Shown here in pieces: positions 17,285-29,675 of a stretch of DNA of 64,000 nucleotides. Source of the stretch: Burkholderiales bacterium (GTDB lineage Bacteria > Pseudomonadota > Gammaproteobacteria > Burkholderiales > Burkholderiaceae_C); NCBI GenBank assembly GCA_017307865.1, contig JAFKGE010000015.1:124001-188000 (forward strand). The letters run 5' to 3'. The first letter of the stretch is position 1. Each line of letters opens with the position of its first letter. The notes under the pieces are model-generated. The model saw only the letters and a program-made list of their open reading frames with translations. It did not search any database and was not told the DNA's origin. A program made the position numbers and the translations under genes.

Positions 17285-17360
17285 GCCGGCTTAGCTCAGT
17301 TGGTAGAGCAACGCACTCGTAACGCGTAGGTCGCCAGTTCGATTCCGGCAGCCGGCACCA
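17285..17360 (+). tRNA. tRNA-Thr (anticodon CGT), integration target
   Basis: This 76-base tRNA has acceptor GCCGGCT/AGCCGGC, anticodon loop CTCGTAA (CGT) and encoded CCA. Two stem pairs are A-C mismatches: 31-39 in the anticodon stem (ACGCA/CGCGT) and 52-62 in the T stem (GCCAG/CCGGC), where family members have A-U. The 3' end from TTCGATTCCGGCAG onward is repeated twice downstream, which marks it as the attachment site of the islands. Confidence 0.93.
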
Positions 17361-17405
17361 GTTCAAGGTCTCACGAAGTCCAAGAACCTCCCGAAACCCG
17401 CATGC
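17338..17405 (+). repeat. Attachment site copy 1 (attL of island 1)
   Basis: These 68 bases run from the T loop of tRNA-Thr through CCA and the start of its terminator. They recur at 26287-26353 with one base missing (GCCGGCACCA becomes GCCGCACCA). Confidence 0.9.
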
Positions 17406-17425
17406 TTCCTAGCAATGCGGGTTTT
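17394..17425 (+). terminator. tRNA-Thr terminator within the att site
   Basis: AACCCGCAT and ATGCGGGTT form a stem over a ten-base loop, followed by TTTT. The same hairpin is carried by both downstream att copies, so each copy is a tRNA 3' end plus terminator. Confidence 0.85.
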
Positions 17426-17468
17426 TTCTTGTCTGCCGTAATCGCAGGATGTAGCATTGAAGCGCGCA

Positions 17469-17537
17469 TTTTTGACGGTATTTTTGACGGTAGTTTTTTG
17501 CCTTCACCGATTTCGGTCCAAAAAATACCGTCAACGG
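17469..17537. promoter_or_regulatory. Putative integrase arm-type sites, island 1 left end
   Basis: TTTTTGACGGTA occurs twice in tandem (17469-17492), and an inverted ATACCGTCAA lies at 17526-17535, just before the integrase start. The same motif pair recurs near the right end of the island at 26214-26232. Confidence 0.6.
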
Positions 17538-17545
17538 GAGACGCA

Positions 17546-18781
17546 ATGGCACTCACAGACACCTTCATCCGGCAGGTCAAGCACCGCGGCAGGCAGGCCG
17601 GCGACAAGCACGCCGACGGCGCCGGCCTGTACCTGCTGGTGACGGCCAGCGGCAAATACTGGCGCCTGGACTACCGCCACGCCGGCAAGCGCCGCACCAT
17701 GGCCCTGGGCGTCTATCCCAAGGTCACCCTCGCCAAGGCCCGCAAACGCCGCGAGGAGGCCCGCGAGTTGCTGGCCGATGGCGTAGACCCCGCCGAGGAG
17801 AAACGCGCCCGCAAGGCCGCCGATGCGGCCGCCGTGGACAGCATCGTCGAGGCCGTCGGCCTGGACTGGCTGGCAACGCACCGCAGCGCATGGAGTCAGG
17901 CGCACTTCACCCGCGAGGAGCGCAACCTCAAGAAGGACGTGTTCCCCTACCTTGGCAAGCGCCGCATCGGCGATATCGAGCCGCCCGAGTTGCTGCAGGT
18001 GATCCGCAAGGTCGAGGCCCGTGGCGCCCTCGACGTGGCGCACCGCGTGCTGATTACCGCGCGGGGCGTTTGGCAACACGCCGTCGCCCACGGCCACGCC
18101 ACGCGCGACGTCACGCAGGACATCAAGAAGGCCCTCAGGCCGCACATCAAGCGCAACCTGCCCGCCATCGTCGAACCGATCGCCTTTGGCGAGCTGCTGC
18201 GCGCGAGTGACGCCTATCAGGGCGGGCCGGTGGTGCGCGCCGCGCTGGCGCTGGCCCCGCTGCTGTTCCAACGTCCCGGCAACCTGCGCACGATGCGATG
18301 GGCCGACCTGGACCTGGACGGCGCGCGCTGGTCCATCCCCAGCGAGGACATGAAGCGCACCCTGACGCAAAAGATCAACGGGCAGGCCCACATCGTCCCG
18401 CTGCCGCGCCAGGCCGTCGCCATCCTGCGCGAGCTGCAGCCCCTGACCGGCGCGCGTGAATACGTGTTCCCCGGCTTTCGTGATCCGACCGCGCCCATGA
18501 GCGAGGCCGGCATCAGCGCCGCCTTGCACGCCATGGGCTACAAGGGCCGCCATTCGTGGCACGGCTACCGCGCCAGCGGGCGCACGATGCTGCGCGAGGT
18601 GCTGGGCTATGACGCCGACGTGATCGAAACCCAGTTGGCGCACAAGGGCCAGGTCACGCACGGCGGCGCCTACGACCGCGCCCAGTTCATCGATGAACGC
18701 GTCGGCATGTTGCAGTCGTGGGCGGACTACCTGGACAAGCTGCGCATGGGGGCGGACGTGATCCAGTTGCGGCATGGGTGA
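17546..18781 (+). CDS. int: P4-type tyrosine site-specific integrase
   Basis: This 411-residue recombinase has an N-terminal DUF4102-type arm-binding domain (MALTDTFIRQVKHRGRQAGDKHADGAGLYL), a central core-binding domain and a C-terminal catalytic domain. Catalytic residues are visible as R in FQRPGNLRTMRWADL, H-x-x-R in HGYRASGRTML, and the nucleophile Tyr in THGGAYDRAQF. It integrates the island into the tRNA-Thr 3' end. The start at 17546 follows CGGGAG; the frame is open upstream to 17402 but that part is arm-site repeat DNA. The tRNA-integrase gap of 185 bases is typical. Confidence 0.95.
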   Translation: MALTDTFIRQVKHRGRQAGDKHADGAGLYLLVTASGKYWRLDYRHAGKRRTMALGVYPKVTLAKARKRREEARELLADGVDPAEEKRARKAADAAAVDSIVEAVGLDWLATHRSAWSQAHFTREERNLKKDVFPYLGKRRIGDIEPPELLQVIRKVEARGALDVAHRVLITARGVWQHAVAHGHATRDVTQDIKKALRPHIKRNLPAIVEPIAFGELLRASDAYQGGPVVRAALALAPLLFQRPGNLRTMRWADLDLDGARWSIPSEDMKRTLTQKINGQAHIVPLPRQAVAILRELQPLTGAREYVFPGFRDPTAPMSEAGISAALHAMGYKGRHSWHGYRASGRTMLREVLGYDADVIETQLAHKGQVTHGGAYDRAQFIDERVGMLQSWADYLDKLRMGADVIQLRHG

Positions 18782-19589
18782 GGCGCGGGTGATGACAAAG
18801 AGGAAGCCAGATTTTGAAGGGGAGCGCCGCGTGGCAATCTGGTACGGCGCGGGGAACCTAAACGAACATGAGCGGGTCGCCTGTTCCAACCATGTGCCGG
18901 CGAGCTGGTTCAAAGACGCTACGCGCAATCGTCGCGGACAGACAGATGCCGAACGGCTGCTGATCGGTGTTGACCACGCGATCGGATATTTCGATACCCA
19001 AGGTGGCCGTGTCTCAGTTGCGGGTAACGCTCTCGCGTCCGATGTTCAGACGATCGTCAGCGCGGCCCAGCGACTGCTGCTTGCAATTCAGACTGCCGAC
19101 AAAGCCGCGCGCGTTGCAATCGATTTACACGCTTCAGCCAGTATCCCGCCCGACCCCGATCAGCTTCAATTGAGTGACGCCGGCTTGATGGCGGTGCACC
19201 CGTTCCAAGCGTTGCGGCACATGGGGCACTTGGATGTCGCGTACGTCGTCCTTGAGGCGGGAATTTTTGAGGATTGCTCAAGCTCGTTCTTGGCTGCGCT
19301 ATGGGACGTTACATCAGACGTCGTGAACCTTGGGCAGCAAGTGATCGCGAGCACTAACAAAGGGCCGCAGGTTCGCCCTGATCGCTTGACTGCTGAAGCG
19401 ATGGCCAAATCCATTGTTGCACATGCATCCTCGGAGCTTGGCCGACCACTGCCTGTTTCACCATGGATTGCGGAGCTGATCGGCGAGGCCGCATCATTTC
19501 GCGGCGTAACCATCGGCAAGCAGGTGGCATTGCGCGCAGTGCGCACCTATGCCAGTCGCCACAAGGATCAATCGAGGCGACTGGCATAG
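18774..19589 (+). CDS. Island cargo protein of unknown function
   Basis: This 271-residue soluble protein has no signal peptide or membrane helix. I recognise no family. Its base composition is visibly less GC-rich than that of its neighbours, and it sits directly behind the integrase (start overlaps its stop by eight bases; ATG 18792 is an alternative). That slot is where satellites often carry accessory genes such as defence or superinfection-exclusion factors. C-terminal helices (LTAEAMAKSIVAHASSELG, IAELIGEAASF) suggest an all-alpha fold. Any function is inference from position. Confidence 0.75.
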   Translation: MGEARVMTKRKPDFEGERRVAIWYGAGNLNEHERVACSNHVPASWFKDATRNRRGQTDAERLLIGVDHAIGYFDTQGGRVSVAGNALASDVQTIVSAAQRLLLAIQTADKAARVAIDLHASASIPPDPDQLQLSDAGLMAVHPFQALRHMGHLDVAYVVLEAGIFEDCSSSFLAALWDVTSDVVNLGQQVIASTNKGPQVRPDRLTAEAMAKSIVAHASSELGRPLPVSPWIAELIGEAASFRGVTIGKQVALRAVRTYASRHKDQSRRLA

Positions 19590-19620
19590 CGTCCGCGTGC
19601 GCTTGACGTTGAAATCCCTA

Positions 19621-19642
19621 CGTCCCGCAACAAAGCGGGACG
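19621..19642 (+). promoter_or_regulatory. Hairpin before the AlpA-like gene
   Basis: CGTCCCGC/GCGGGACG is a perfect 8-bp stem with a six-base loop, ending a few bases before a GAAAGGGG ribosome-binding site. It could be an operator or a translational control element. It lacks a T-run, so it is not a standard terminator. Confidence 0.45.
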
Positions 19643-19654
19643 AAAGGGGTTCAA

Positions 19655-19858
19655 TTGATTCAATCCAACACTTCAAGCCGCCCCCGGCAAGCTGCTGAGC
19701 TGCTGGGCATCAGCCGCGCGACCCTGTGGCGCTGGGCCGCAACCCGCCATGATTTCCCACGCGCCCGGCGCCTGTCGGCACGCTGCACGGTTTTCGACAC
19801 CGGCGAAATCCTGGCTTGGCGCGACGCCCAGGCCCGGACCATCAAGGTGGAGGGCTGA
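19655..19858 (+). CDS. AlpA/MerR-like excisionase-regulator
   Basis: This 67-residue winged-helix protein starts at TTG with a strong GGGG ribosome-binding site. QAAELLGISRATLWRWAATRHDFPRARRLSARCTVFDTGEILAWRDAQ is the AlpA/excisionase layout: a DNA-reading helix, a wing, and the closing W(R/L) helix. In P4-like elements such proteins act as excisionase and as activator of the integrase or primase operon. It heads the replication operon here. The TTG start may keep its dosage low. Confidence 0.85.
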   Translation: MIQSNTSSRPRQAAELLGISRATLWRWAATRHDFPRARRLSARCTVFDTGEILAWRDAQARTIKVEG

Positions 19859-19861
19859 GCG

Positions 19862-20200
19862 ATGGCCGACCCGCAAATCCTCACCCGTCGCGCGCCGCCT
19901 GCCGACTACAAATCCACGGCCGCCACGCTCTACGCCTTGAGCGCCGACGCGCTGAGTGCAATCGAGATGCTCGCCAACCTGGCGTTGAGAGAAATCGACC
20001 ACGGCCCCGGCCGGATGGATGGCGCCCTGATCGTCCGCGCGCTTACCGAAATCGTTTACCGGGCGTCCGACGCGGAAAACGGTGTCAGCTACGCCGCCGA
20101 GTGCGCCGGCCTTGCGTCCGCTGGCGACCACCTGCGCCACCTGACGCGCGCCGCCGCCCTTGAGGGCCGCACCTGGCCGCCGGAGGGCAGCGCGAAATGA
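19862..20200 (+). CDS. Small conserved satellite/phage protein
   Basis: This 112-residue protein has no recognised domain. It contains a helical stretch (YALSADALSAIEMLANLALREID) and begins three bases after the AlpA-like gene. Its end overlaps the next start (ATGA), so it is embedded in the replication operon. A role in DNA replication or copy control is inferred only from its place. Confidence 0.7.
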   Translation: MADPQILTRRAPPADYKSTAATLYALSADALSAIEMLANLALREIDHGPGRMDGALIVRALTEIVYRASDAENGVSYAAECAGLASAGDHLRHLTRAAALEGRTWPPEGSAK

Positions 20201-20544
20201 AATCCTCAAACGATAAGGCCGCTGGGGTGGTGCAAACACCCGCAGCGGCCAAAAAGATTCTCAAACCCGAATCAGGCCCAAGTGTAGCAATCCGCCCCAC
20301 TCGACGCAACCCGGCGCGCTCGCTGCTGGGTATCGCCAGCAAGCCCCTTGTCCGCGCCGCCTGGACGTCGCTTGCTGATCGCTTCGAGCCCGACCGCCCG
20401 CTGCGCAAGGGGCGCATCGCGCTGGATGGCCGCAGCTACGACTTCGAGCTGCGCGTCGACCTGTCCATTCTGGTTCTTGACCCGGCCGACGGCGCCATCG
20501 TGGCCGAATCGCCGCCGCTGATCGTGCGGGAGGTGACGCGATGA
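20197..20544 (+). CDS. Small conserved satellite/phage protein
   Basis: This 115-residue protein is basic in its first half (KKILKPESGPSVAIRPTRRNPARS) and has a beta-rich second half (RIALDGRSYDFELRVDLSILVLDP). It overlaps its neighbours by four bases at both ends, so all are translationally coupled. I recognise no family; the basic part could contact nucleic acid. Confidence 0.68.
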   Translation: MKSSNDKAAGVVQTPAAAKKILKPESGPSVAIRPTRRNPARSLLGIASKPLVRAAWTSLADRFEPDRPLRKGRIALDGRSYDFELRVDLSILVLDPADGAIVAESPPLIVREVTR

Positions 20545-21362
20545 GCAGCATGATCGATGCCATGCGCCTGGCCGGCCTGGCGCCGCACAAGGAGCTGATC
20601 CTGACCGCCGATGGCCGCCTGCGCCGCTACCGCGTGGAGGGCGACAAGCCCGGCAGTGCCAACGGCTGGGCCGTGCTGCACGAAGGCGCCATCCAGTCCG
20701 GCGCCTTCGGCTCTTGGAAGACCGGCGCCGTGCACACCTGGCGCCAGAACAGTGACCGTCGTCTGAGCGCGGCCGAACGCCAGGCGCTGCGCCAGCAACA
20801 AGCCGCCGCACAGCAGGCGCGCGCCGCTGAACAGCGCCAGGTGCAGGCGCAGGCCGCCCAGCGTGCCGAACGGCTGTGGCAGCGCGCCCGGCCGGCGACG
20901 GATGCACATCCTTACCTGGCAAAAAAGCGCGTGCGCGCCATCGGCCTGCGCCAGTTGCGCGACATGCTGATGGTGCCGGCGCGCGACACGTCCGGGCGGC
21001 TGTCGACGCTGCAATTCATCGGCCCGGATGGCACCAAGCGATTCCTGACGGGCGGGCGCATTCAGGGCTGTTACTGCGCCATGGGCCGGCCGTCCGACTG
21101 CTTGCTGGTGTGCGAGGGCTACGCCACGGGCGCCACCATCTTTGCGGCCACCGGCCAGGCCGTTGCCGTGTGCTTCAACTGCGGCAACATGCTGCCGGTT
21201 GCGCAGGCGCTGCGGCGCAAGTTCCCCGCGCTGCGCCTGATCGTCTGCGCCGACAACGACGCCGGCACGCCCGGCAATCCTGGCCTGACCCATGCACGCG
21301 CCGCCGCGCGCGCCGTGGGCGGCGAGGTGGTGGCGCCCGACTTTGCGGGGGTGCCGGCATGA
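20541..21362 (+). CDS. TOPRIM-domain primase-like protein
   Basis: This 273-residue protein has a C-terminal TOPRIM domain: LLVCEGYATGATIF supplies the catalytic Glu and LRLIVCADNDAG the DxD-type metal motif. The middle (LSAAERQALRQQQAAAQQARAAEQRQVQAQAAQ, about residues 75-110) is a Gln/Ala-rich coiled coil. The N-terminal part resembles the DUF5906/DUF3854-associated zinc-less primase leader found in phages. With the downstream DUF3987 protein it probably primes replication of the island. Its stop overlaps the next start (ATGA). Confidence 0.85.
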   Translation: MSSMIDAMRLAGLAPHKELILTADGRLRRYRVEGDKPGSANGWAVLHEGAIQSGAFGSWKTGAVHTWRQNSDRRLSAAERQALRQQQAAAQQARAAEQRQVQAQAAQRAERLWQRARPATDAHPYLAKKRVRAIGLRQLRDMLMVPARDTSGRLSTLQFIGPDGTKRFLTGGRIQGCYCAMGRPSDCLLVCEGYATGATIFAATGQAVAVCFNCGNMLPVAQALRRKFPALRLIVCADNDAGTPGNPGLTHARAAARAVGGEVVAPDFAGVPA

Positions 21363-22918
21363 GCGCGCAGCCGAGCGATTTCAACGACCTGGCCGCCGCG
21401 CGCGGACTGGCCGCCGTGCGCCAGCAGATCGAGCCCGCCGTCCAAGGCGTGACCGATTGGCCGGTGCCCATCGTGTCCGCCGCCCTGCCGCCCGCCATTG
21501 GTGCCGACCTGCTGCCGGCCTGGCTGGGCCGCTACGTGGCCGCCCTGGCCGCCAGCACGCAGACGCCGGTCACCATGAGCGCGCTGTTTGCGCTGTCGGT
21601 GGTGAGCGCCTGCGCGCAACGCCGCTACGTGGTGGCGCCGCTGGGGGTTGATGCCGGCTACACCGAACCGGCGACGTTTTGGTCGCTGTCCGTGGCCGCC
21701 AGCGGCAGCCGCAAGAGCGCCATCGTCGACCCCCTCACCCGGCCGCTGGCCGCATGGGAAAAGCGCGCCAGCGACCGCATGCGGCGCGAGATCAACACCA
21801 ACGCCTCCCGGCGCATCGTGGCCGAATCCGTCATCAAGCGCCTGCAGGGGCAGGCCGGCAAGACTGACGATCCGCAAGAGCGCGAGCGCCTGCGCCAGCA
21901 GATCGAGGACGAGCAAAACGCCATGCCCGAGCCGCTGTTCGCGCCGCGCGTGTTCCTTGATGACAGCACCGTCGAGCGGCTGCAGGGCGTGCTGTCCGAG
22001 CAGGGCGGGCGCGTGGCCGTGTTGTCCGACGAGGGTGGACTGTTCAACACCATCGCCGGCTCCTACGGCGGGGGCGCCGGCCCGGCGTTGGATGTGCTGC
22101 TGAAAGGTCACCACGGCGGGTCGGTGCGTGTGGAGCGCGCCACCCGTACCGCCTACGTCGACCGGGCCGCGCTGGTGCTGGGCTTGATGCTGCAGCCCGA
22201 CCTGTTGAACGACGCGGCCGGCAGCAACCGCTTTCGCGCCAGCGGCTTGATGGCCCGCTTCGCCTACGCCATCCCCGGCCAGGTGGTGGGCGGGCGCGAC
22301 GTGCGGGCGTACACGGCCATCCCGGCCGACCTGCAAAAAGAGTACGAGCACGAGGTCGACGCGCTGCTGGGCGATCCGATGGAAGGTCCACACCTGCCGC
22401 CGCGCATGCTGCCGCTGGCCGACGATGCGCGCGAGGCTTGGCTGGACTACGCGCAGGAGATCGAGCACGCCCTGGCGCCCGATGGCGAGCTGGCCGCGAT
22501 TGCCGACTGGGGCGCCAAGCTGGCCGGCCTGGCCGCGCGCATCGCGCTGCTGTTCGAGCTGGTCACCAGCGGGCCAGGTGCCGAGCTGGTGTGCGCCGAC
22601 AGCACCCAGCGCGCCATCGCCTTGTGCCGCCTGCTGGTGCCGCACGCGAAGGCGGCCTTCCGCCTGCTGGCTGCCGACGAAGCCGACCGCGACGCCGATG
22701 CCGTGCTGGCGTGGGCGGTGCGCACGGGCCTGCGCGACGAGTTCAAGCAGTCCGAGGTTCACCTCGCCCTGCGCAGCCGCTTCACCAAGAAGGAGCGCCT
22801 GATCGCTGCGCTGCAGCGGCTGCAGGCCAATGGCGCGCTGCGCCATGAGCAGCGTAAGAACCAAGGGGCGCGTCCGTCCGACGTGTGGCACATCAACCCG
22901 CGCCTGTTCCTGCAGTGA
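21359..22918 (+). CDS. DUF3987 (YfjI-like) replication protein
   Basis: This 519-residue protein matches the DUF3987 family: ASGSRKSA near residue 120 is a Walker A-like loop with Ser in place of Gly, and LSDEGGLFNTIAGSYGGG is the conserved Asp/Glu-Gly segment after it. A helical C-terminus holds a possible winged helix (RLIAALQRLQANGALRHEQRKNQG). Family members sit next to TOPRIM or primase genes in phages and satellites and are taken to be helicase or loader-like. It ends the coupled operon 19862-22918. Confidence 0.82.
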   Translation: MSAQPSDFNDLAAARGLAAVRQQIEPAVQGVTDWPVPIVSAALPPAIGADLLPAWLGRYVAALAASTQTPVTMSALFALSVVSACAQRRYVVAPLGVDAGYTEPATFWSLSVAASGSRKSAIVDPLTRPLAAWEKRASDRMRREINTNASRRIVAESVIKRLQGQAGKTDDPQERERLRQQIEDEQNAMPEPLFAPRVFLDDSTVERLQGVLSEQGGRVAVLSDEGGLFNTIAGSYGGGAGPALDVLLKGHHGGSVRVERATRTAYVDRAALVLGLMLQPDLLNDAAGSNRFRASGLMARFAYAIPGQVVGGRDVRAYTAIPADLQKEYEHEVDALLGDPMEGPHLPPRMLPLADDAREAWLDYAQEIEHALAPDGELAAIADWGAKLAGLAARIALLFELVTSGPGAELVCADSTQRAIALCRLLVPHAKAAFRLLAADEADRDADAVLAWAVRTGLRDEFKQSEVHLALRSRFTKKERLIAALQRLQANGALRHEQRKNQGARPSDVWHINPRLFLQ

Positions 22919-22995
22919 ATCACGTTTCTCCATATAGAGGAATAAATGAATTCATCTTTATCTACATACACATACGCATGCACGCGGCTGGGAGG

Positions 22996-23065
22996 CATGA
23001 AAAACGTGAAAAACGTGAAGAAGCCAAAGCCGCTCAGGTCTTTCACGTTCTTCATGTTTTTCACC
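22996..23065. repeat. Iteron-like direct and inverted 9-bp repeats
   Basis: Three tandem units of C(A/G)TGAA(A/G)AA at 22996-23022 face three inverted units at 23041-23065, across an 18-base spacer. The gap 22919-23223 otherwise holds no credible gene; open frames through it read only the repeats (FFTFF or NVKNV strings). The place right after the primase/DUF3987 genes suggests a replication origin. Confidence 0.6.
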
Positions 23066-23223
23066 CTGTCGGGGCGCACGCATGCATGTGGACCACGGGG
23101 CGTCAGGCTGGCAGCCAGCGGGCGCGCGGGTCCTCCCCAGCCCTCCCCATCGAGGGTAATCGCGACGCGCGATCTCTCGCTAGTGGGTGCGCTTTCCAAT
23201 AGCTTGACAGTGCCCTTGACACC

Positions 23224-23434
23224 ATGACATTGTTTGACTTCGACCCCACCGAAGTCGCCGCCATCGCGCAGGCCCAGGAGCGCGACAAAGACCAGGCCGG
23301 CCACGCTCGCGCCCGAGCTGGTGGGAAAGGCGGAGGACGTCATCGCATCAACCATCGCGCAATTTGTGGAAAACACACTGCGCACGACCTCCCAACACCT
23401 TCAAAAGATTTCCACCATGGAGGCTGCCCGATGA
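23224..23434 (+). pseudogene. Small gene with an apparent 1-base frameshift
   Basis: The frame from ATG 23224 gives a natural-looking start (MTLFDFDPTEVAAIAQAQERD) that turns into Arg/Gly-rich text after about residue 26. The neighbouring frame then gives PELVGKAEDVIASTIAQFVEN and a helical end, stopping at 23434 in an ATGA overlap with the next start. Joining the two frames near 23300 gives a plausible 70-residue protein. It may be a decayed gene or a sequencing error. Confidence 0.4.
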
Positions 23435-23498
23435 GCTTTGACCACCTGAGCCTTGGCTCCGCCGGGACGAGGTTCTGGTGGTGGAGGTCAAACCGTGA
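23431..23498 (+). pseudogene. Very small ORF with an apparent 1-base frameshift
   Basis: MSFDHLSLGSAG runs from ATG 23431. A shift of one base near 23465 continues as DEVLVVEVKP and stops at 23498, overlapping the next start as GTGA. Without the shift the frame ends at 23505 with a Trp/Arg-rich tail. The coupled start and stop support the shifted reading, but a product of about 22 residues is too short to judge. Confidence 0.3.
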
Positions 23499-23887
23499 CC
23501 GTTGATCCGCTACTGCTGCTGGCATGCGCCGCCAGAGGTGAAGCAGTGACGATGCCCGCCGACCTGGCCGCCACGCTGCTGCAGGCCAACCCCGCCGACC
23601 TACCTGCTCTGCTGGGCCTGGACCGCGCAAGCCGCACGCGCCGGCGCAACGCAGCCTTGGGGCGTGCGGCCGAGCTGCTGTCTGGCGACGGTTGCGGCGC
23701 ATGGATTACTGCCGGGCGCCTGGCAGCCGCGATCGAGCGGTTCGAGCGCGCCCTATGGCCGGCGCTGCTGGGCGGCGCGCGACTGGAGCTGTCGGAGATC
23801 GAGCAAGCCCTGTACGAGGCTTTTTTGACTGGTGCAACGCCGGTTACCTGCCAGCGCCGCCTGTTCGAGCTGCTGCGCGCCGACTGA
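23495..23887 (+). CDS. Small phage/satellite protein of unknown function
   Basis: This 130-residue protein begins at GTG 23495, placed 8 bases after GGAGG. The sequence is alpha-helical, with LGRAAELLSGDGCGAWITAGRLAAAIERFERALWP and ELSEIEQALYEAFLTG. I recognise no family. It lies between the replication genes and the capsid gene, where head-related or DNA-modification accessory proteins are common. An upstream in-frame ATG at 23453 adds a Gly-rich leader that looks like out-of-frame DNA. Confidence 0.65.
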   Translation: MTVDPLLLLACAARGEAVTMPADLAATLLQANPADLPALLGLDRASRTRRRNAALGRAAELLSGDGCGAWITAGRLAAAIERFERALWPALLGGARLELSEIEQALYEAFLTGATPVTCQRRLFELLRAD

Positions 23888-23933
23888 CCAAAGAGCCGCC
23901 CCGCGTCAGTGCAATGGCCGTGATCATCGCAAC

Positions 23934-24284
23934 ATGGCCCAGCAAAACACCCCCCAAACCATCGTCGGTATCGAGCCCGACGGCCCGTTCGTTCGCCTGG
24001 CGCTGCGCGCTGGCGACACCGAACTGATTGCCACCCTGGACCCGCGCCGCACCGCGCTGCTGGCCGCACGCCTGAGCTACGCCATCGGCGAGGCCATCCT
24101 GGCCGCCGAACAAATTGGTAAGGCGCTCGCTGGCGCCCAGGCCGACACCCTGCTCTACCACCGTCGCCACGACGTCGAGAACCTCGCCGCGCCAGCCATC
24201 GACGCCGCTGCCGCGCTGGAATTGGCCGGTGCCGTGCTCAGCCGCGCCGCTGCGCATGACAACCGCCAAACGGGGGCGCGCTGA
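23934..24284 (+). CDS. Small phage/satellite protein before the capsid gene
   Basis: This 116-residue protein has the start MAQQNTPQTIVGIEPDG chosen by composition; upstream in-frame codons are Cys/Ala-rich shadow text. Its stop overlaps the protease-capsid start at 24284, so it is cotranslated with the head gene. The C-terminal half is helical (ARLSYAIGEAILAAEQIGKALAG). I recognise no family; an assembly-related role is inferred only from coupling. Confidence 0.65.
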   Translation: MAQQNTPQTIVGIEPDGPFVRLALRAGDTELIATLDPRRTALLAARLSYAIGEAILAAEQIGKALAGAQADTLLYHRRHDVENLAAPAIDAAAALELAGAVLSRAAAHDNRQTGAR

Positions 24285-26014
24285 TGCTGACCCGTCAAAT
24301 CGAGCTGCGCGCCGACGCTGCCGGCGATGTCGAGGCAATCCCCTGCACCATCGCCACCAATGCGCCCGTGCCGCGATCCATGGGTGCCGAAATCCTCGAT
24401 TGCACGCCCGCCGGTGTAGACCTCACGCGCGCGCCGTTGCCGCTGTTGATCGCCCATGATGCCGGTAGCCTGGCCGTGGGTCACGTTGACGCATTGGCAG
24501 CCGACGGCAACCGCGTGACCGGCCGGGCGCGCTTCGCCACCTCGCCCGAGGCTCAGCAGATTTTGGCCGACGTGAAAGCCGGCATTCACCGATCGCTCAG
24601 CGTCGGCTATCAGCACATCGGCGAGGGCGTGCCCACCGACGCCGGCACCGTGTACCGCTGGCAGCCGCATGAAGTCTCCATCGTCCCCGTTCCCGCCGAC
24701 GTCGCCGCCGGTTTTTTCCGCTCATTGCACGACACGAACATGAACACCACCGCGCCCGCCACCACCGCACCCGCCACCACCGCGCCCGCCATCAACCGCG
24801 CCGGACTGCAAGCCGAGATCATGGAGCTGGGCAAGCGCCACGGCCTGACCGACTTTGCGCGCGGCCTGGCGCAAAGCGCCACCGACATCGGCGCGGCCCG
24901 AACCGCCATCGCGAACGAGCTAGGCGCCCGTGACCTGGCCGCAGGCGGTCACATCAACGTGAGCCCGATGGACTACTCCGGTGGGCGCAACGAGCGCGAA
25001 GTCCTGATTGCTAGCCTGGCGCACCGCATGGGCGCGCGCCAGAAGGATCAGCCCATCCTGCGCGGCCTCGACGCCGTGGGCCTGGCGCTGCGCTCGCTGG
25101 AGCTGGCTGGCGAGCGTGTCTACTCCGACATGAGCCGCACGCAGATCATTGAGCGCGCCATGCACGGCACGGGCGACTTCCCGAACCTGCTGGGCGCTGC
25201 GGCTGGCCGTGTGCTTCATGATGCCTACGCCGCCGCGCCGGCCGCGCTGAAAGCGGTTGCACGCGAAACCCTGCTGCCCGACTTTCGCGACCGCACTGCG
25301 GTTCGCTTGGGCAGCGCGCCGTCGCTGGAGAAGGTCAACGAGCACGGCGAGTTCCACTACGGCACCATCGAAGAGGGCGCCGCCGTCTGGCGCCTGGCGA
25401 CCTACGGCCGCATTTTCTCCATCACGCGCCAAGCCCTGGTCAATGACGATCTGGGCGCCTTCGGCGACCTGGTGCGCATGTTTGCCGAGGCCGCTGCGCG
25501 CCGTGAGGCCGACGAGCTGGTCAAGGCCCTGACGAGCCCCGGTCAGGTCGACGGCGCCGCCCTGTTCAGCAGCGCGCGCAGCACGCAGACCGCGCGCAAG
25601 CTGACGCTGGCCGGACTGGGCGTTGCCGTGCAGGCGCTGCGCAGTCAAAAGCATTTCGGCGAGCTGGTCGCCCAAGAGCCCGGCGCCATCGTGGTGCCCG
25701 CCGCGCTGGAAATGACCGCGCGCCAATTGGTGGCCAGCATCAGCGCCACCAAGACCAGCGACGTGCAGCCCTTCGGCCCGCTGGGCGTGGTGGTCGAGCC
25801 GCGCCTGACCGATGCCGATGGATGGTATTTGGTGGCCGTCAATCAGCGCGCCCTCGAATACGGCTACCTGGACGGCGAGGCCGGCCCGCAGATCAGCCAG
25901 CGCGAGGGCTTCGAGGTCGACGGCCTGGAGGTCAAGGCCCGCCTGGACTTCGGTTGCGGCTGGGTCTCGCCCGTTGGCTGGGTGCAGAACACCGGCGCCA
26001 CTGGCGACGTATAA
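24284..26014 (+). CDS. Fused HK97 prohead protease and major capsid protein
   Basis: This 576-residue polyprotein has an S78-type prohead protease in residues 1-150: DLTRAPLPLLIAHDA carries the catalytic His, and GIHRSLSVGY carries the catalytic Ser. A linker made of three TTAPA units (24746-24790) follows, then a scaffold-like helix and an HK97-fold capsid domain from about 220 to the end, including EHGEFHYGTIEEGAAVWRLATYGRIFSITRQALVNDDLGAF. The protease would cleave the linker during prohead maturation. An in-frame ATG at 24740 could give the capsid part alone, but no ribosome-binding site is visible. It is the only structural gene of the island. Confidence 0.9.
   Translation: MLTRQIELRADAAGDVEAIPCTIATNAPVPRSMGAEILDCTPAGVDLTRAPLPLLIAHDAGSLAVGHVDALAADGNRVTGRARFATSPEAQQILADVKAGIHRSLSVGYQHIGEGVPTDAGTVYRWQPHEVSIVPVPADVAAGFFRSLHDTNMNTTAPATTAPATTAPAINRAGLQAEIMELGKRHGLTDFARGLAQSATDIGAARTAIANELGARDLAAGGHINVSPMDYSGGRNEREVLIASLAHRMGARQKDQPILRGLDAVGLALRSLELAGERVYSDMSRTQIIERAMHGTGDFPNLLGAAAGRVLHDAYAAAPAALKAVARETLLPDFRDRTAVRLGSAPSLEKVNEHGEFHYGTIEEGAAVWRLATYGRIFSITRQALVNDDLGAFGDLVRMFAEAAARREADELVKALTSPGQVDGAALFSSARSTQTARKLTLAGLGVAVQALRSQKHFGELVAQEPGAIVVPAALEMTARQLVASISATKTSDVQPFGPLGVVVEPRLTDADGWYLVAVNQRALEYGYLDGEAGPQISQREGFEVDGLEVKARLDFGCGWVSPVGWVQNTGATGDV
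24746..24790 (+). repeat. 15-bp tandem repeat (x3) in the capsid linker
   Basis: ACCACCGC(G/A)CCCGCC is repeated three times and encodes TTAPA each time, between the protease and capsid domains. Confidence 0.9.
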
Positions 26015-26121
26015 CGAACACCGCGTTTCGGCGGTTACCGCGCCCGCTTGTCTGGCATTGCAAGCGGCACGCCTCCCCTGCGGACGTACCCACCGGCGGC
26101 GAGGGAAGGCACCTACACCAC

Positions 26122-26150
26122 AAGCCCGGCCGCGTGCCGGGCTTTTCTTT
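26122..26150 (+). terminator. Rho-independent terminator after the capsid gene
   Basis: The stem AAGCCCGGC/GCCGGGCTT with a five-base loop is followed by TTCTTT, about 110 bases after the capsid stop. It probably ends the island 1 late operon. Confidence 0.85.
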
Positions 26151-26213
26151 GCGGCATGGACGCAGCCGACTGGTGGTCGCATCCGCGCCACAAGATGGGT
26201 CACGCGACGATTT

Positions 26214-26232
26214 GTCGGTATTTTTGACGGTA
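26214..26232. promoter_or_regulatory. Putative integrase arm-type site, island 1 right end
   Basis: GTCGGTA-TTTTTGACGGTA lies 55 bases before att copy 2. The motif is of the same GACGGTA variant as at the left end of island 1. Confidence 0.55.
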
Positions 26233-26286
26233 TGTCAGGATGACGATTGGTGAAAACCTAGCATCCATGCGGTCTACACAGTGATA

Positions 26287-26353
26287 TTCGATTCCGGCAG
26301 CCGCACCAGTTCAAGGTCTCACGAAGTCCAAGAACCTCCCGAAACCCGCATGC
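26287..26353 (+). repeat. Attachment site copy 2 (between islands 1 and 2)
   Basis: These 67 bases are identical to 17338-17405 except for one missing G in the acceptor end (GCCG-CACCA), followed by a variant of the same terminator hairpin. It is a tRNA 3' end without a 5' half. Confidence 0.9.
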
Positions 26354-26484
26354 AGCCTAGCATCGCGGGTTTTTTTGTTATCCCCGTTAGTCCCGATTGA
26401 TACCATGACATACCAGCAAATTGATGGCACTTTTGTTGGTATGGAGCCAAACCAGCCAAATCGGATACCAACACGGGAGCACGG

Positions 26485-27492
26485 ATGCCTGAACTTGGCA
26501 TTGCGTGTCTGTTGTCAGCAGTCGCAGATGTGCAAGCCAAAAGACAACGAAACATGACCACCTTCCACCCACGCGCCGACGATAACGGCAAGCACCGTCA
26601 AATCCTGAAACCGAGCCAACCCACCGATCTGGGCACATGGAGCGACCCATCCGCGATAGCACGTGCGGTGCCCGACAGCACCATGCCTGATTTGATTGGC
26701 GACGTGTCTGTGGCTGCATGGAACGACGCACCTGCCACTTCAGAGGACTGGGAACTGCTCGTTAAAGGCCTGACGTTCAGTGAGCCGCCGATGCCCAGCG
26801 CGTTAGGCAAGAAGCCGGCCGCAGGCGTGGTGACGATCGAGCCAGACGGCAGGGTGTGGGCAGTCGCGCCGACCGACGGGTATGGCGGCTACGCGACGAC
26901 CTTTCCCAAGGGAAAGCTCGATGGTTTGAGCCCACGCGCCACGGCCATCAAGGAAGCTTTCGAGGAATCCGGCTTGCGTGTCGAGCTGACTGGTTATCTG
27001 TGCGACATTGTCCGCACCACCAGCGTGACGCGCTACTACACCGCGCGGCGCGTTGGCGGCAACCCGGCGGCGATGGGTTGGGAATCGCAGGCGGTCATGC
27101 TGGTGCCGATCAATGAACTGCGCAGCGTGACGACGCACCCCAACGACGCCCCGATCATCTCTGCTCTGCCCCACCGCGCAATCATTGCCTACGAGTGGGG
27201 GCTGGCATCCGGGCATAGGGTTCTCGATACGCTAGCGGGATACTTCGCGCGCTATGGCGAGTGGCCGACAGAAATTTCCATTGAGATAGACATGCACGAT
27301 GGACTCCGTGACACCATCTTCACCCCGTATGGATGGCGACTGTTGAATGAACGACTGAAGGTGCATGCAACCGACACACCACGGCTGGAAGCCGAAGGAG
27401 GTCACGGACAGAAGCACAGCTATGACACGAATGGCCCCGTCGATCTACGCAAACGGGCCAGCGAATGGATTTGGAACGTCGACCTGACTTGA
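26485..27492 (+). CDS. Nudix hydrolase with N- and C-terminal extensions
   Basis: This protein is 335 residues from ATG 26485 (ACGGGAG ribosome-binding site) or 312 from ATG 26554, where conserved-looking sequence begins. The Nudix box is GKLDGLSPRATAIKEAFEESGL: KEAFEESG keeps the metal-binding Glu pair, but the first half is one residue short and lacks the first Glu of GX5E. LPKG-type context (TFPKGKLD) resembles ADP-ribose or diphosphoinositol-type Nudix enzymes. About 110 N-terminal and 110 C-terminal residues are unassigned. Together with the neighbouring genes an ADP-ribose or nucleotide substrate is a reasonable guess. Confidence 0.78.
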   Translation: MPELGIACLLSAVADVQAKRQRNMTTFHPRADDNGKHRQILKPSQPTDLGTWSDPSAIARAVPDSTMPDLIGDVSVAAWNDAPATSEDWELLVKGLTFSEPPMPSALGKKPAAGVVTIEPDGRVWAVAPTDGYGGYATTFPKGKLDGLSPRATAIKEAFEESGLRVELTGYLCDIVRTTSVTRYYTARRVGGNPAAMGWESQAVMLVPINELRSVTTHPNDAPIISALPHRAIIAYEWGLASGHRVLDTLAGYFARYGEWPTEISIEIDMHDGLRDTIFTPYGWRLLNERLKVHATDTPRLEAEGGHGQKHSYDTNGPVDLRKRASEWIWNVDLT

Positions 27493-27507
27493 CAGAGGAG
27501 TGAACCC

Positions 27508-27843
27508 ATGTGGCTGTGCCTGAACAATGCATTCCTGTCCATCGTGGACAAGGACTGCGCCCCCGACGAACTGCTGGTTCGCGCGCGCCGTGATGGCGAC
27601 ATCGAGCGCGTCTTTCCGGGGGCCGAGGTCGAAGTGACGCTGGGCAACGACTACCGCTGCCGGGCACGCATCAAGCGCGCCGAGGTGGCCGCTGCGATCA
27701 CCCAGCGCGTGATGGACATCGACTACAGCAACTTCAAGGGTTCGACCAAGGACAAGCCCTTGCACGATGCGTACATGGGCGTGTGGAGCGCCATCGGCAA
27801 GCTGCAGCCGGGTGGGCCCTACAGCAGCGGAATGCGCCGGTAA
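27508..27843 (+). CDS. Small conserved protein of unknown function
   Basis: This 111-residue protein starts MWLCLNNAFLSIVDKD, a beta-rich opening typical of a small conserved family I have seen in mobile islands but cannot name. RVFPGAEVEVTLGNDYRCRARIKRAEVAAAI looks like a beta-strand pair followed by a helix. GAGGAG precedes the start, 15 bases after the Nudix stop, so both form an operon. It may be a partner of the Nudix enzyme. Confidence 0.72.
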   Translation: MWLCLNNAFLSIVDKDCAPDELLVRARRDGDIERVFPGAEVEVTLGNDYRCRARIKRAEVAAAITQRVMDIDYSNFKGSTKDKPLHDAYMGVWSAIGKLQPGGPYSSGMRR

Positions 27844-27872
27844 CCCAAAGCCATGCTGGGCGGCCGGCGCCG

Positions 27873-28316
27873 TCAGCCTGCCCGCTCCCGCTCGCGTGCC
27901 TCGGCGGCCTGCTCGGCATCATCGTGGGGATCGCAGGAGGCACACAGCACGGCCAATTGCCGGTCGCCGATGCACTGGGCAACCTCCCCGCTTTCATCCA
28001 GCTGCAGCGTGACCTGCGCAAAGGCCGTGTGCGGCTGGGTGCCATCGACCGGCCCGCCGCATTGGCCACAGGGCATGATCGGCTCCGCCTTGGGGCTGAG
28101 GAACTTCAACCCCAGCGCGGCGATGACCTGCGGCTCCTGGCTGTCGCGGCACTGCGCGCTGCAGTAGTTGCGCAGGGTGTCGGCATCCTCGATATGAAGC
28201 ATGCTCTGGATCGCTTCCCCCACCCGCTGAAATTCCAGTCGCTGCCGGCGCCAGTCGAGGGTGCGCAGCGGCGAGGCAAACTCCTGCTGGCAGACCGAAC
28301 AGAGGAAGCGCATCAA
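27873..28316 (-). CDS. Cys-rich zinc-ribbon protein
   Basis: This 147-residue protein has several Cys pairs: C-x2-C near residue 6 (CSVC), YCSAQC near 51, CGQCGG near 82 and CASC near 125. They suggest two zinc ribbons. The C-terminus is an acidic/basic helix (DDAEQAAEARERERAG). It overlaps the upstream gene by four bases (ATGA) and follows it in the same operon. I recognise no named family; zinc ribbons of this type bind nucleic acid or protein. Confidence 0.7.
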   Translation of the reverse strand: MMRFLCSVCQQEFASPLRTLDWRRQRLEFQRVGEAIQSMLHIEDADTLRNYCSAQCRDSQEPQVIAALGLKFLSPKAEPIMPCGQCGGPVDGTQPHTAFAQVTLQLDESGEVAQCIGDRQLAVLCASCDPHDDAEQAAEARERERAG

Positions 28317-29350
28317 CGGGCTCCAGAAGGGTTCGAGCTGGGCACATACCGGCCCACCAGCTCGCGCGTGGCACGCGACGGCGCGCCGTAGCAGACGATG
28401 CGCACATCCAGCGCCCAGCCGCGCGCCAGATCCAGCGCCCGGGCCATGGCGTCATGGATCCAGTCGTCGTCGTTGCCGAACGCCCCGCCGCCCAGGTGCG
28501 TCAGCAGCACCACGTTGGTGCCGCCGGCCTGCGCATTCTCGGCAGCGGCCAGCAGGGTGGCCTCGTAGGCGGCCTCGAGCACCAGGCGGGCAAACGGCGC
28601 CCATTGCGCGGCCGGCACGCGGGTGTAGGCCACGGGCAGGGCCGAGCAGAACGCCTGGGAAACGATGGGCCGAGGTTCGCCCTCGGCATCGGTGACCTCC
28701 ACCCCGGCATGAACCCCGATGCGCAGGTGGCCACGCAAGCCGTCGATCAGGGCCGGATCAGCGGATTTCAGGGCTTGGGCGATGGCCTGCAACCCGTCCG
28801 ATCTGGCCAGGGCGTAGCCGTTTTGCATGCGCCAGAGTTCGGGCACAGAGCGGCCGGTCAGCTCGCCCAAGGCAGCGCCCAAGTCGGCCAGGCCATCCAA
28901 CTGCCGGTCGCGGGTCTGGCCGATGGCACCGCCACACGGCGTGAAGTAGTTGCGGTAGATGGTGGCTGCACCGGCGGCCATGGCGCAGGCCGGGCCCTGG
29001 GTGCGGTCATGGGCGTAGCGCGTGACACCGTCCTCGGGCGAGACGTTGGGGCCGACCATCTCCAGCAGGTTGAACTGGCTGGCGACCTGGAGCAGCGCGC
29101 CAGCGAATTCCGGCTGGCGGTGCAGCGCACGCACGTCGCCGGTGACGATGCTCACCTTGAGCGATCCGGGGGAAGCGCCCACGCGACGGCGCAACTCGGC
29201 CAAGGAGGGCAGCTCCAGCCGCCCGATGCCATAGCTCTGGCCGTTGACCATGGAGCGCAGACGATCACCCTCGACCACCAACTGCCGGCGCGTTTCGTCG
29301 CTGCCCGATTCCCGAAAGCCCGTCAGACGCTCAAACCAGTCCATGTCCAT
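28313..29350 (-). CDS. Possible macrodomain-like (ADP-ribose-binding) protein
   Basis: This 345-residue soluble protein has landmarks that recall macrodomain-like proteins: LKVSIVTGDVRALHRQPEFAGALLQVASQFNLLEMV (strand, GD, helix), then the conserved GVTRYAHDRTQGPACAMAAGA, and near the C-terminus NVVLLTHLGGGAFGND, which resembles the glycine-rich phosphate loop that binds ADP-ribose. This assignment is by motif and I cannot confirm it. It is the first gene of a two-gene minus-strand operon with the zinc-ribbon protein, facing the Nudix operon. If right, the island encodes two ADP-ribose-related proteins. Confidence 0.6.
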   Translation of the reverse strand: MDMDWFERLTGFRESGSDETRRQLVVEGDRLRSMVNGQSYGIGRLELPSLAELRRRVGASPGSLKVSIVTGDVRALHRQPEFAGALLQVASQFNLLEMVGPNVSPEDGVTRYAHDRTQGPACAMAAGAATIYRNYFTPCGGAIGQTRDRQLDGLADLGAALGELTGRSVPELWRMQNGYALARSDGLQAIAQALKSADPALIDGLRGHLRIGVHAGVEVTDAEGEPRPIVSQAFCSALPVAYTRVPAAQWAPFARLVLEAAYEATLLAAAENAQAGGTNVVLLTHLGGGAFGNDDDWIHDAMARALDLARGWALDVRIVCYGAPSRATRELVGRYVPSSNPSGAR

Positions 29351-29436
29351 CCCTCACACGGCCATGATCGGCCGCTCGGGTGATGTTGCCATCTCCTGAT
29401 GACCTCGGGGTCAAAAAATGGGACACGGCGCGAATT

Positions 29437-29455
29437 GTTGGTATTTTTGTTGGTA
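29437..29455. promoter_or_regulatory. Putative integrase arm-type site, island 2 right end
   Basis: GTTGGTA-TTTTTGTTGGTA lies about 55 bases before att copy 3, the same distance as in island 1 but with the GTTGGTA variant. Confidence 0.55.
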
Positions 29456-29509
29456 TGTTGAACATTTAATTTCTGAAAACCGCCTGTTCATACGGGTATC
29501 CGGATCAAA

Positions 29510-29665
29510 TTCGATTCCCGCAGCCGCACCATTCGATAGTCTCAAGATACCGTCAGATTGCCTCACAAACCCGCATGCTTCCTGGCAATGCGGGTTTTTT
29601 CTTGTCTGCCGCAATCGCAGGATGCAGCATTGAAGCGCGCATTTTTGACGGTATTTTTGACGGTA
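29510..29665 (+). repeat. Attachment site copy 3 with integrase-leader scar
   Basis: TTCGATTCCCGCAGCCGCACC begins the copy. Bases 29567-29665 match 17394-17492 (tRNA terminator plus the tandem TTTTTGACGGTA arm sites) at 96 of 99 positions, yet no integrase follows: the 5'-nucleotidase gene ends 11 bases on. This looks like the left end of a third, deleted element. The gap 29351-29675 holds nothing else. Confidence 0.85.
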
Positions 29666-29675
29666 CTTTCGACCT

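What the first reader, a model, noticed from the sequence alone, without database searches (positions are those of the whole stretch)
17546..26014. Very small island with its own HK97 protease-capsid fusion but no other virion genes
Seen: integrase, AlpA-like regulator, TOPRIM and DUF3987 replication genes and one fused prohead protease/capsid gene ending in a terminator. Missing: portal, terminase, connectors, tail, lysis. Known capsid-forming satellites (cf-PICI) carry more head genes. A satellite that brings only a capsid could force small heads on a helper phage while borrowing its portal and terminase, or it may be a prophage remnant kept by selection. The gene is intact and codon use is normal, which argues against simple decay.
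Basis: partly seen in the sequence, partly recalled or inferred. Interest (0 to 1): 0.75.

Follow-up and report, generated by a model that had tools for sequence, protein, structure and literature searches.

The report
Satellite island carrying only its capsid
A 9 kb island in a bacterial chromosome looks like a phage parasite that brings its own shell protein and DNA-packaging signal but must borrow the rest of the virus particle from a helper phage; relatives with the same layout exist in other bacteria, so it is probably a real element and not a broken virus.

Summary
An 8.95 kb island lies between att repeats at tRNA-Thr(CGT). It carries integrase, AlpA, Toprim primase, DUF3987 helicase and one intact prohead-protease/HK97-capsid fusion; no portal, large terminase or tail gene was detected. 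Two features were missed: inverted iterons directly 3' of DUF3987 (origin-like) and a lambda cosQ-cosN-like sequence at 23128-23162. Six further loci share the order Toprim-DUF3987-iterons-cos-small genes-capsid without detected portal or TerL; three of the seven have a small terminase. The four with both ends placed span 8.9-10.0 kb. Two members show purifying selection on the capsid. The seven capsids form a 100/100 clade, on the satellite-like side of a 100/99 split from phages. None of the seven genomes has a GpA-type TerL or Portal_2 hit. Best reading: a Burkholderiales lineage of Gram-negative PICI-type satellites. Satellites with a capsid gene but a borrowed packaging machine are published (SaPIbov5 Ccm; EcCICFT073, PmCI172), so this is a new variant of a known kind. 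That the capsid builds small heads on a helper's portal is inferred; deleting the capsid gene of EcCICFT073 had no effect. Present-day prophage decay is unlikely.

The parts
17285..17360 (+). tRNA-Thr(CGT), integration site
   Evidence: ARAGORN
17338..17427 (+). attL: tRNA 3' end plus following terminator, repeated at the far end
   Evidence: direct repeats D3/D5, sequence
17469..17492 (+). arm-type direct repeats TTTTTGACGGTA next to int (role inferred)
   Evidence: read from sequence; similar repeat at 26207-26234
17546..18781 (+). tyrosine integrase, 411 aa (frame open from 17402)
   Evidence: Pfam/PHROGs
18774..19589 (+). unknown, 271 aa, low GC3 (0.63)
   Evidence: no Pfam, PHROG, NCBIfam or PADLOC hit; GC3
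19655..19858 (+). AlpA-like regulator, 67 aa
   Evidence: PF05930 2.6e-8
19862..20200 (+). unknown, 112 aa
   Evidence: no confident hit
20197..20544 (+). unknown, 115 aa; homologue before Toprim in G011 (34%)
   Evidence: blastp
20541..21362 (+). Toprim primase, 273 aa
   Evidence: phrog_2249 4.2e-72; 79% to G011
21359..22918 (+). DUF3987 helicase, 519 aa
   Evidence: PF13148 2.9e-90; 82% to G011
22998..23063 (.). origin-like inverted iteron arrays (20/22 complementary arms)
   Evidence: exceeds 20 of 20 dinucleotide shuffles, as in all 7 members
23128..23162 (+). lambda cosQ-cosN-like site GGGTCCT-N19-GGGTAATCG
   Evidence: lambda ends read; motif was written from the islands, so the window match itself is no test
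23495..23887 (+). unknown, 130 aa (144 aa if started at 23453), in the place of the ~160-aa gene of the other members; homology not shown
23934..24284 (+). unknown, 116 aa, directly before the capsid; 39% to the 75-aa gene of L185
24284..26014 (+). prohead protease (S78-like) fused to HK97-fold major capsid, 576 aa
   Evidence: model pLDDT 84.9; Foldseek to HK97-fold capsids
26122..26144 (+). intrinsic terminator after the capsid
26207..26234 (+). arm-type repeats at the right end (role inferred)
   Evidence: (D6)
26286..26375 (+). attR
   Evidence: D3/D5

Best explanation
This is an intact phage satellite of the Gram-negative PICI type, of a lineage seen here only in Burkholderiales. Shown by sequence: integrase at a tRNA with att repeats at both ends; AlpA; a primase-helicase pair followed by inverted iterons; a lambda-like cos sequence; one protease-capsid fusion as the only virion gene recognised. 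Inferred: a lambda-like cos phage (GpA-type TerL, Portal_2 portal, related protease-capsid head) enters or is induced, AlpA switches the island on, it excises and replicates from its own origin, and helper TerL (guided by the satellite's own TerS in members that have one) cuts concatemers at the island's cos. The island's capsid, matured by its own fused protease, forms or co-forms the shell around the helper's portal, probably sized for about 9-10 kb, and helper connectors and tail complete the particle.
For: Same order, no portal or TerL detected, in 7 loci: window, G011, Acidovorax sp. NB1 (L033), Burkholderiaceae MAG (L034), Polaromonas MAG (L035, contig starts inside Toprim), G779, G681 (lowest E for TerL or portal in them 0.077). 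Of 399 genomes sampled from the family, 5 carry a member. Lengths 8,948, 9,976, 9,643 and 9,590 bp where both ends are found, at tRNA-Thr, -Thr, -Met, -Ser. Inverted iterons exceed all 20 dinucleotide shuffles in 7 of 7. cos motif by pattern in 6 of 7, a variant read by eye in the 7th. Outside the window, L015, L033, L034 and L035 the motif occurs 15 times in 135 sequences; 11 lie 18-102 bp upstream of a TerS-profile ORF, 3 lie 561-570 bp upstream of TerL, one (L048) 3.8 kb away. TerS in 3 of 7. Capsid dN/dS 0.093 between L034 and L035, capsid domain 0.057. The 7 capsids are one clade (100/100) on the satellite-like side of a 100/99 branch. HK97 fold. Codon fit 0.966.
Against: No helper is known: 0 of the 7 member genomes has a PF05876 TerL or PF05136 portal hit. 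Deleting the capsid gene c1499 of EcCICFT073 changed neither transfer nor interference (PMC6092414), so such a capsid may be dispensable. Ccm of SaPIbov5 cannot build a shell alone (PMC8569155), so a complete shell is not a given. Window and L033-L035 show no TerS. The cos call rests on motif and position only, and the pattern is missing from most relatives: 13 of 69 sequences with a TerS hit and 14 of 81 with a TerL hit have it, and none of the 6 named phages does. The AT-rich stretch lies beside the iterons, not between them. G011's att core is short (9 bp exact). The selection test uses one pair of members. No induction or particle data.
Confidence: 0.7

Rival explanations
1. Interference rather than construction: the capsid co-assembles with the helper's capsid (as Ccm pentamers do in SaPIbov5) and redirects head size or poisons helper heads, without building a whole shell itself.
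For: Direct precedent in PMC8569155 (24% identity to helper capsid, mixed T=4 shell; passages). Capsid diverges faster than replication genes between window and G011 (dN 0.448 against 0.136 for DUF3987), as expected if it tracks helpers.
Against: The fused protease is kept; in SaPIbov5 no protease has been identified. The capsids group with elements most of which carry portal and TerL too, i.e. possibly self-built heads.
Confidence: 0.3
2. The capsid gene is cargo with no present role in transfer; the island uses full-size helper heads and packages multimers, as an E. coli Gram-negative PICI does.
For: c1499 deletion has no phenotype (PMC6092414); [quoted passage not shown] coli model is packaged as phage-length concatemers.
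Against: Purifying selection between L034 and L035 (dN/dS 0.057 in the capsid domain) and the 8.9-10.0 kb size of 4 of 4 measurable members. That 7 of 7 keep the capsid is no evidence, since they were found by it.
Confidence: 0.2
3. Remnant of a prophage or of a cf-PICI whose other head genes were deleted.
For: Related small elements carry TerS, TerL, portal and the same capsid type, so reduction of such an element is a plausible origin. Capsid-only states arise several times (8 parsimony changes, with loci of only one marker counted as having both).
Against: Both ends, iterons, cos-like site and frames are intact; the same content recurs in 7 diverged members; no full prophage in the clade; capsid under selection in the pair tested.
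Confidence: 0.08
4. Encapsulin-like or defence use of an HK97 shell by the host.
For: HK97-fold shells serve as encapsulins; encapsulins are among the structural hits.
Against: Protease fusion, cos-like site, integrase and att sites point to packaging; no PADLOC hit for the six island proteins tested, capsid included; no cargo gene recognised.
Confidence: 0.03

Closest known systems
Gram-negative PICIs (EcCICFT073, PmCI172; PMC6092414)
   Same: One-way gene order from int, AlpA, primase-replicon with iterons 3' of the Rep gene, cos packaging by lambda-like helpers (EcCICFT073), a capsid gene on a small island that depends on helper packaging proteins
   Different: Burkholderiales host (all PICIs of that study are in Gammaproteobacteria); capsid fused to its own protease; Toprim and DUF3987 as two genes; EcCICFT073 also has a head decoration gene and no TerS, while 3 of 7 members here have TerS
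SaPIbov5 with Ccm (PMC8569155)
   Same: Satellite with a homologue of a phage capsid protein as its only protein found in the particle; cos type
   Different: Gram-positive; [quoted passage not shown]
cf-PICIs
   Same: Own HK97-type capsid and protease; tail surely borrowed
   Different: Published description includes portal, connectors, TerS and TerL (PMC10690885); portal, connectors and TerL not detected here. PMC11389934 reports that cf-PICI capsids form three separate clades among phage capsids (passage); whether the present clade belongs to one of them was not tested. The host carries a separate element of the classical layout on contig C44
Small portal-TerL-capsid elements of Alphaproteobacteria (e.g. 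L040, L042, L046)
   Same: Same fusion architecture (34-35% identity over the protein), TerS of the same profile family
   Different: They carry TerL, portal and a small decoration-like gene; different replication genes
P4-like satellites
   Same: Integrase at tRNA, AlpA-like regulator, primase-helicase replication (P4 features recalled or from passages)
   Different: No Sid, Psu or delta family among the hits; own capsid instead

Membership tests
Gram-negative PICI | Specific att site with integrase, element bounded by repeats | tested here: met
   also L034 and G779
Gram-negative PICI | att sites never used by prophages in the species | not tested
   no survey of prophage att sites was made
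Gram-negative PICI | AlpA or MerR-type regulator, genes transcribed one way, rightward from int | tested here: met
   AlpA PF05930; the ten genes scanned are all on +
Gram-negative PICI | Replication gene followed by an origin with two iteron sets flanking an AT-rich region | tested here: inconclusive
   two inverted iteron sets 3' of DUF3987 in 7 of 7, but the AT-rich stretch lies beside, not between, the arms; origin function untested
Gram-negative PICI | cos or TerS for packaging | tested here: inconclusive
   cos-like motif at the place where relatives have it before TerS; no TerS in the window; function untested
Gram-negative PICI | Genes exclusive to PICIs (KEGG orthology) | not tested
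   the published analysis was not repeated
Gram-negative PICI | Phage-dependent induction, interference, high transfer | not testable with these tools
   needs helper phage experiments
cf-PICI | Capsid and head maturation protease | tested here: met
cf-PICI | Portal, connectors, large terminase encoded | tested here: not met
   no TerL or portal profile hit below E 1 in the island, none for PF05876/PF05136 in the genome; no connector family among hits of the ten island proteins
P4-like | Sid/Psu/delta helper-exploitation genes | tested here: not met
   no such family among the hits
Defective prophage | Random truncation, broken genes, close full-length relatives | tested here: not met
   7 members with open capsid frames, no full prophage found in the clade

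The most novel reading that the evidence does not exclude
There is a class of shell-only satellites: elements with a capsid lineage of their own, separate from phage capsids, that keep capsid plus protease (plus TerS or, in some Alphaproteobacteria, a tape-measure protein) and little or nothing else of the virion, so that they set particle size while the other parts come from helpers; the seven-member family is its cleanest case and builds complete small shells on a borrowed portal.
Probability: 0.35. Interest if true: 0.75.

Novelty: new variant of a known kind. Interest (0 to 1): 0.52.

Why it matters
The role of capsid genes in Gram-negative satellites is open: they are common (21 of 29 reference PICIs, PMC10111431, passage), yet the deletion test in EcCICFT073 gave no phenotype. 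Here is a family in which the gene is selected (one pair tested), has its protease attached, and points to a helper type (lambda-like cos phage), with one member in an isolated strain, Acidovorax sp. NB1, so the question can be tested directly. If the shell is complete, it is an intermediate between PICIs that use helper heads and cf-PICIs that take only tails.

Tried and rejected
DUF3987 in viral contigs: nothing. Resident helper: not found for PF05876/PF05136 in the 7 member genomes; PMC11389934 (passage) notes that some genomes have satellites without any possible helper. A second S78 locus in the host genome first looked like a helper prophage; it reads as a cf-PICI with another TerL/portal type. 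That the ~160-aa gene before the capsid is a diverged TerS: rejected, since G011, G779 and G681 carry both; the window's 130-aa gene could not be shown to be its homologue. The tape-measure profile was insensitive (7 loci), so absence of tails in the small portal-TerL elements rests on gene lists read by eye for seven of them. Classes: 132 loci with a capsid hit, L003 dropped as partial, 52 PT_split, 30 PT_contig, 28 with one of the two, 16 capsid-only, 5 too short. L051 is counted capsid-only, but its capsid is nearly identical to that of L058, which has a portal 9.2 kb away, so it is probably a cut prophage. For L044, TerL and portal on contig C7 of the same genome could not be placed relative to the capsid. 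L077 and L124 (classed contiguous) fell on the satellite side of the second tree, L017 and L047 (classed split) on the phage side; its bootstrap had not settled (0.963). Ends of L033 and L035 and the second end of L185 were not resolved. The first tree had 131 rows; the second used 58 of those plus L184 and L185. My gene caller (onward) often chose the wrong strand in the GC-rich window, so window genes rest. The cos pattern was written after seeing the islands, so its shuffle counts are no test for the window; a looser form gave 20 hits against a mean of 1.65 in 20 shuffled sets.
Full report
Observation. The island at 17546-26014 is real. hmmscan names an integrase, an AlpA regulator, a Toprim primase, a DUF3987 helicase and a prohead protease fused to an HK97-type capsid. 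The borders are set by a repeat of the tRNA-Thr(CGT) 3' end and its following terminator, 73 nt at 95% identity, 8,948 bp apart. The capsid gene is last, followed by a terminator (26122-26144), arm-type repeats (26207-26234) and attR. Profiles for portal, TerL and tape measure listed nothing below E 1 for the window island among ORFs of 30 aa or more.

What was missed. Directly 3' of DUF3987 lie inverted iteron arrays (22998-23063, 20 of 22 complementary). The best 22-base inverted repeat exceeds all 20 dinucleotide shuffles in each of the seven members (window 20 against at most 16; G011, the weakest, 18 against 16). Then comes GGGTCCT-N19-GGGTAATCG at 23128-23162. I wrote this motif from the islands, so its absence from 100 shuffles of the window is no independent test. 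The test is its place elsewhere: of 15 matches outside window, L015, L033, L034 and L035, 11 lie 18-102 bp upstream of a TerS-profile ORF, 3 lie 561-570 bp upstream of TerL where no TerS was detected, and one (L048) lies 3.8 kb away; 20 shuffled sets gave 1.65 matches on average against 20 in all. Against it: only 13 of 69 sequences with a TerS hit and 14 of 81 with a TerL hit have the motif in this form, and none of the 6 named phages. Lambda ends with GGGTCCTTTCC and starts with GGGCGGCGACC, so the arrangement resembles cosQ-cosN; their roles are as given in PMC6092414 section 12 (read). I take it as a cos site used by a lambda-like terminase (inference).

Relatives. Close capsid relatives occur in G011 (same genus, 51%), Acidovorax sp. 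NB1 (60%), a Burkholderiaceae MAG (56%), a Polaromonas MAG (56%), G779 (54%) and G681 (55%). All seven keep Toprim, DUF3987, inverted iterons, a cos-like site (6 of 7 by pattern; G779 has a variant read by eye), small genes and capsid, in that order (L035 is cut inside Toprim). None shows portal or TerL: the lowest E among them is 0.077. Three of seven (G011, G779, G681) add a small terminase (phrog_57, 6.5e-28 for G011). Of 399 genomes drawn from the family, 5 carry a member (9 match at E 1e-80, the other four at 478 bits or less). In 398 genomes drawn from the phylum no match besides the window's own exceeds 362 bits. All members were found through the capsid, so how many such islands lack it is unknown.

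Mobility. Four members have both ends placed: window 8,948 bp and G011 9,976 bp at tRNA-Thr, L034 9,643 bp at tRNA-Met with a 46-bp exact repeat, G779 9,590 bp at tRNA-Ser with a 13-bp repeat. G681's integrase lies beside another tRNA-Ser. The G011 core is only 9 bp exact but is backed by 20-bp arm repeats at both ends; its element lies in the opposite orientation at the same tRNA. The narrow size is what a size-limited head would impose, though four members are few (inference).

Selection. L034 and L035 lie in different surroundings and are 96% identical in the capsid; dN/dS (Nei-Gojobori) is 0.093 for the gene and 0.057 for the capsid domain. Between window and G011 the capsid has dN 0.448 against 0.136 for DUF3987 (dS 1.17 against 0.74, near saturation), so the capsid changes faster or was exchanged. 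In one further contig (L024) a protease half 51% identical over 152 residues is joined to a capsid of another Pfam family, PF05065, which fits exchange of shells to follow helpers (inference).

Where the capsid belongs. A survey of 132 capsid loci, one dropped, gave 52 with separated TerL and portal, 30 with TerL-portal-capsid contiguous, 28 with only one of the two found (many on short contigs), 16 with neither and 5 too short. In the careful tree of 60 rows the seven capsids form one clade (100/100) among the small elements with separated TerL and portal, which I take for satellites; a branch with 100/99 support parts them from phages such as S1, mEp460, JBD68 and LPPA33. The root is the midpoint, and the bootstrap had not fully settled. 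Four capsid-only loci (L021, L022, L055, L061) fall on the phage side, so the capsid-only state arose more than once (8 parsimony changes). PMC11389934 reports three separate clades of cf-PICI capsids (passage), so satellite capsid lineages as such are known; whether this is one of them was not tested. The predicted structure (pLDDT 84.9) matches HK97-fold capsids, among them entries for SaPI1 and the cf-PICI EcCI2. Residues His58, Ser106 and Glu130 of the protease half are at least 90% conserved in 35 sequences; that they are the catalytic residues of family S78 is recalled, not tested.

Helper. None of the seven member genomes has a GpA-type TerL or a Portal_2 portal (in, 4 of 17 genomes had hits, none of them a member's). 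So a helper of this type, if any, comes from outside. Loci with this head type and motif, contiguous as in prophages, exist in Burkholderiales, for instance Rhodoferax (L068) and Caldimonas (L054).

Mechanism. Shown by sequence: att-bounded element, regulator, replication module with iterons, cos-like site, intact shell gene, selection in one pair. Inferred: excision, replication to concatemers, cutting at the cos-like site by helper TerL, and a shell of the satellite's own protein around a borrowed portal with borrowed tail. The main rivals are a Ccm-like mixed shell and a capsid gene with no role in transfer; published work supports each in other satellites (PMC8569155, passages; PMC6092414, abstract, passages and sections 5, 6, 12; PMC10111431, passages).

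Known or new. PMC6092414 describes EcCICFT073, cos-packaged and AlpA-controlled, with a capsid and a head decoration gene whose deletions had no effect on transfer or interference, and PmCI172, which makes small heads and encodes a capsid homologue. PMC10111431 counts a capsid gene in 21 of 29 reference Gram-negative PICIs. cf-PICIs as described carry portal, connectors and terminase (PMC10690885, passages); that test is failed here. I found no description of this Burkholderiales family or of satellites with only a protease-capsid fusion in the listings, which cover only open-licence papers and show only the top of long lists; the original cf-PICI paper was not read. The verdict is a new variant of a known kind.

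Noticed in passing
G000 contig C44, about 17810-29000 (L019:7810-19000): The host genome also holds an element with the classical cf-PICI layout beside tRNA-Arg(CCT): int, AlpA, HK97 capsid (PF05065), S78 protease, PF04860 portal, TerL (PF03354/PF20441), two connectors (PF05135, PF05521), then a host-like gene with no tail gene recognised. Two satellites of different packaging type share one host.
   Followed up: partly
window 26376-29669: A second block of about 3.2 kb without a recognised integrase follows attR: a NUDIX gene (PF00293) and unknown genes, with a third att copy at 29509 and different arm repeats (GTTGGTATG) near both of its ends (26416-26443 and 29430-29457); 29567-29669 repeats the int-side flank of the first island (17394-17496) at 96%. 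It looks like a tandem passenger or decayed element.
   Followed up: partly
L038, L055, L059, L061 (Alphaproteobacteria by record title): Loci with this capsid type and no portal or TerL profile hit nearby, but a tape-measure protein (PF10145); L038 also has a tail chaperone (PF10109), L059 a weak baseplate-hub hit (PF05954, below its cut-off), L061 a DUF4815 protein. Satellites setting both head size and tail length, or prophage fragments.
   Followed up: partly
L024:1474-3288: A protease domain 51% identical over 152 residues to the window's is fused to a capsid of another family (PF05065) on a 3.4 kb contig with an integrase fragment: a capsid exchange under one protease.
   Followed up: no
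L040, L041, L042, L046 and IMG/VR contigs such as L069, L075, L108: Small elements with TerS-TerL, a gap, portal-capsid and often a small decoration-like gene, then integrase or host genes; likely an alphaproteobacterial cf-PICI-like family, in part catalogued as viruses.
   Followed up: partly
L185:5337-5371 and 5924-5959: The G681 member has two cos-like sites flanking its TerS gene, recalling the two cos sites of EcCICFT073 (PMC6092414 section 12).
   Followed up: no
window 22998-23063 and L015, L033, L034, L035, L184, L185: Iteron sequences differ between members while the inverted architecture is kept (L033 and L185 share GTCGACA), suggesting separate replicon specificities.
   Followed up: no
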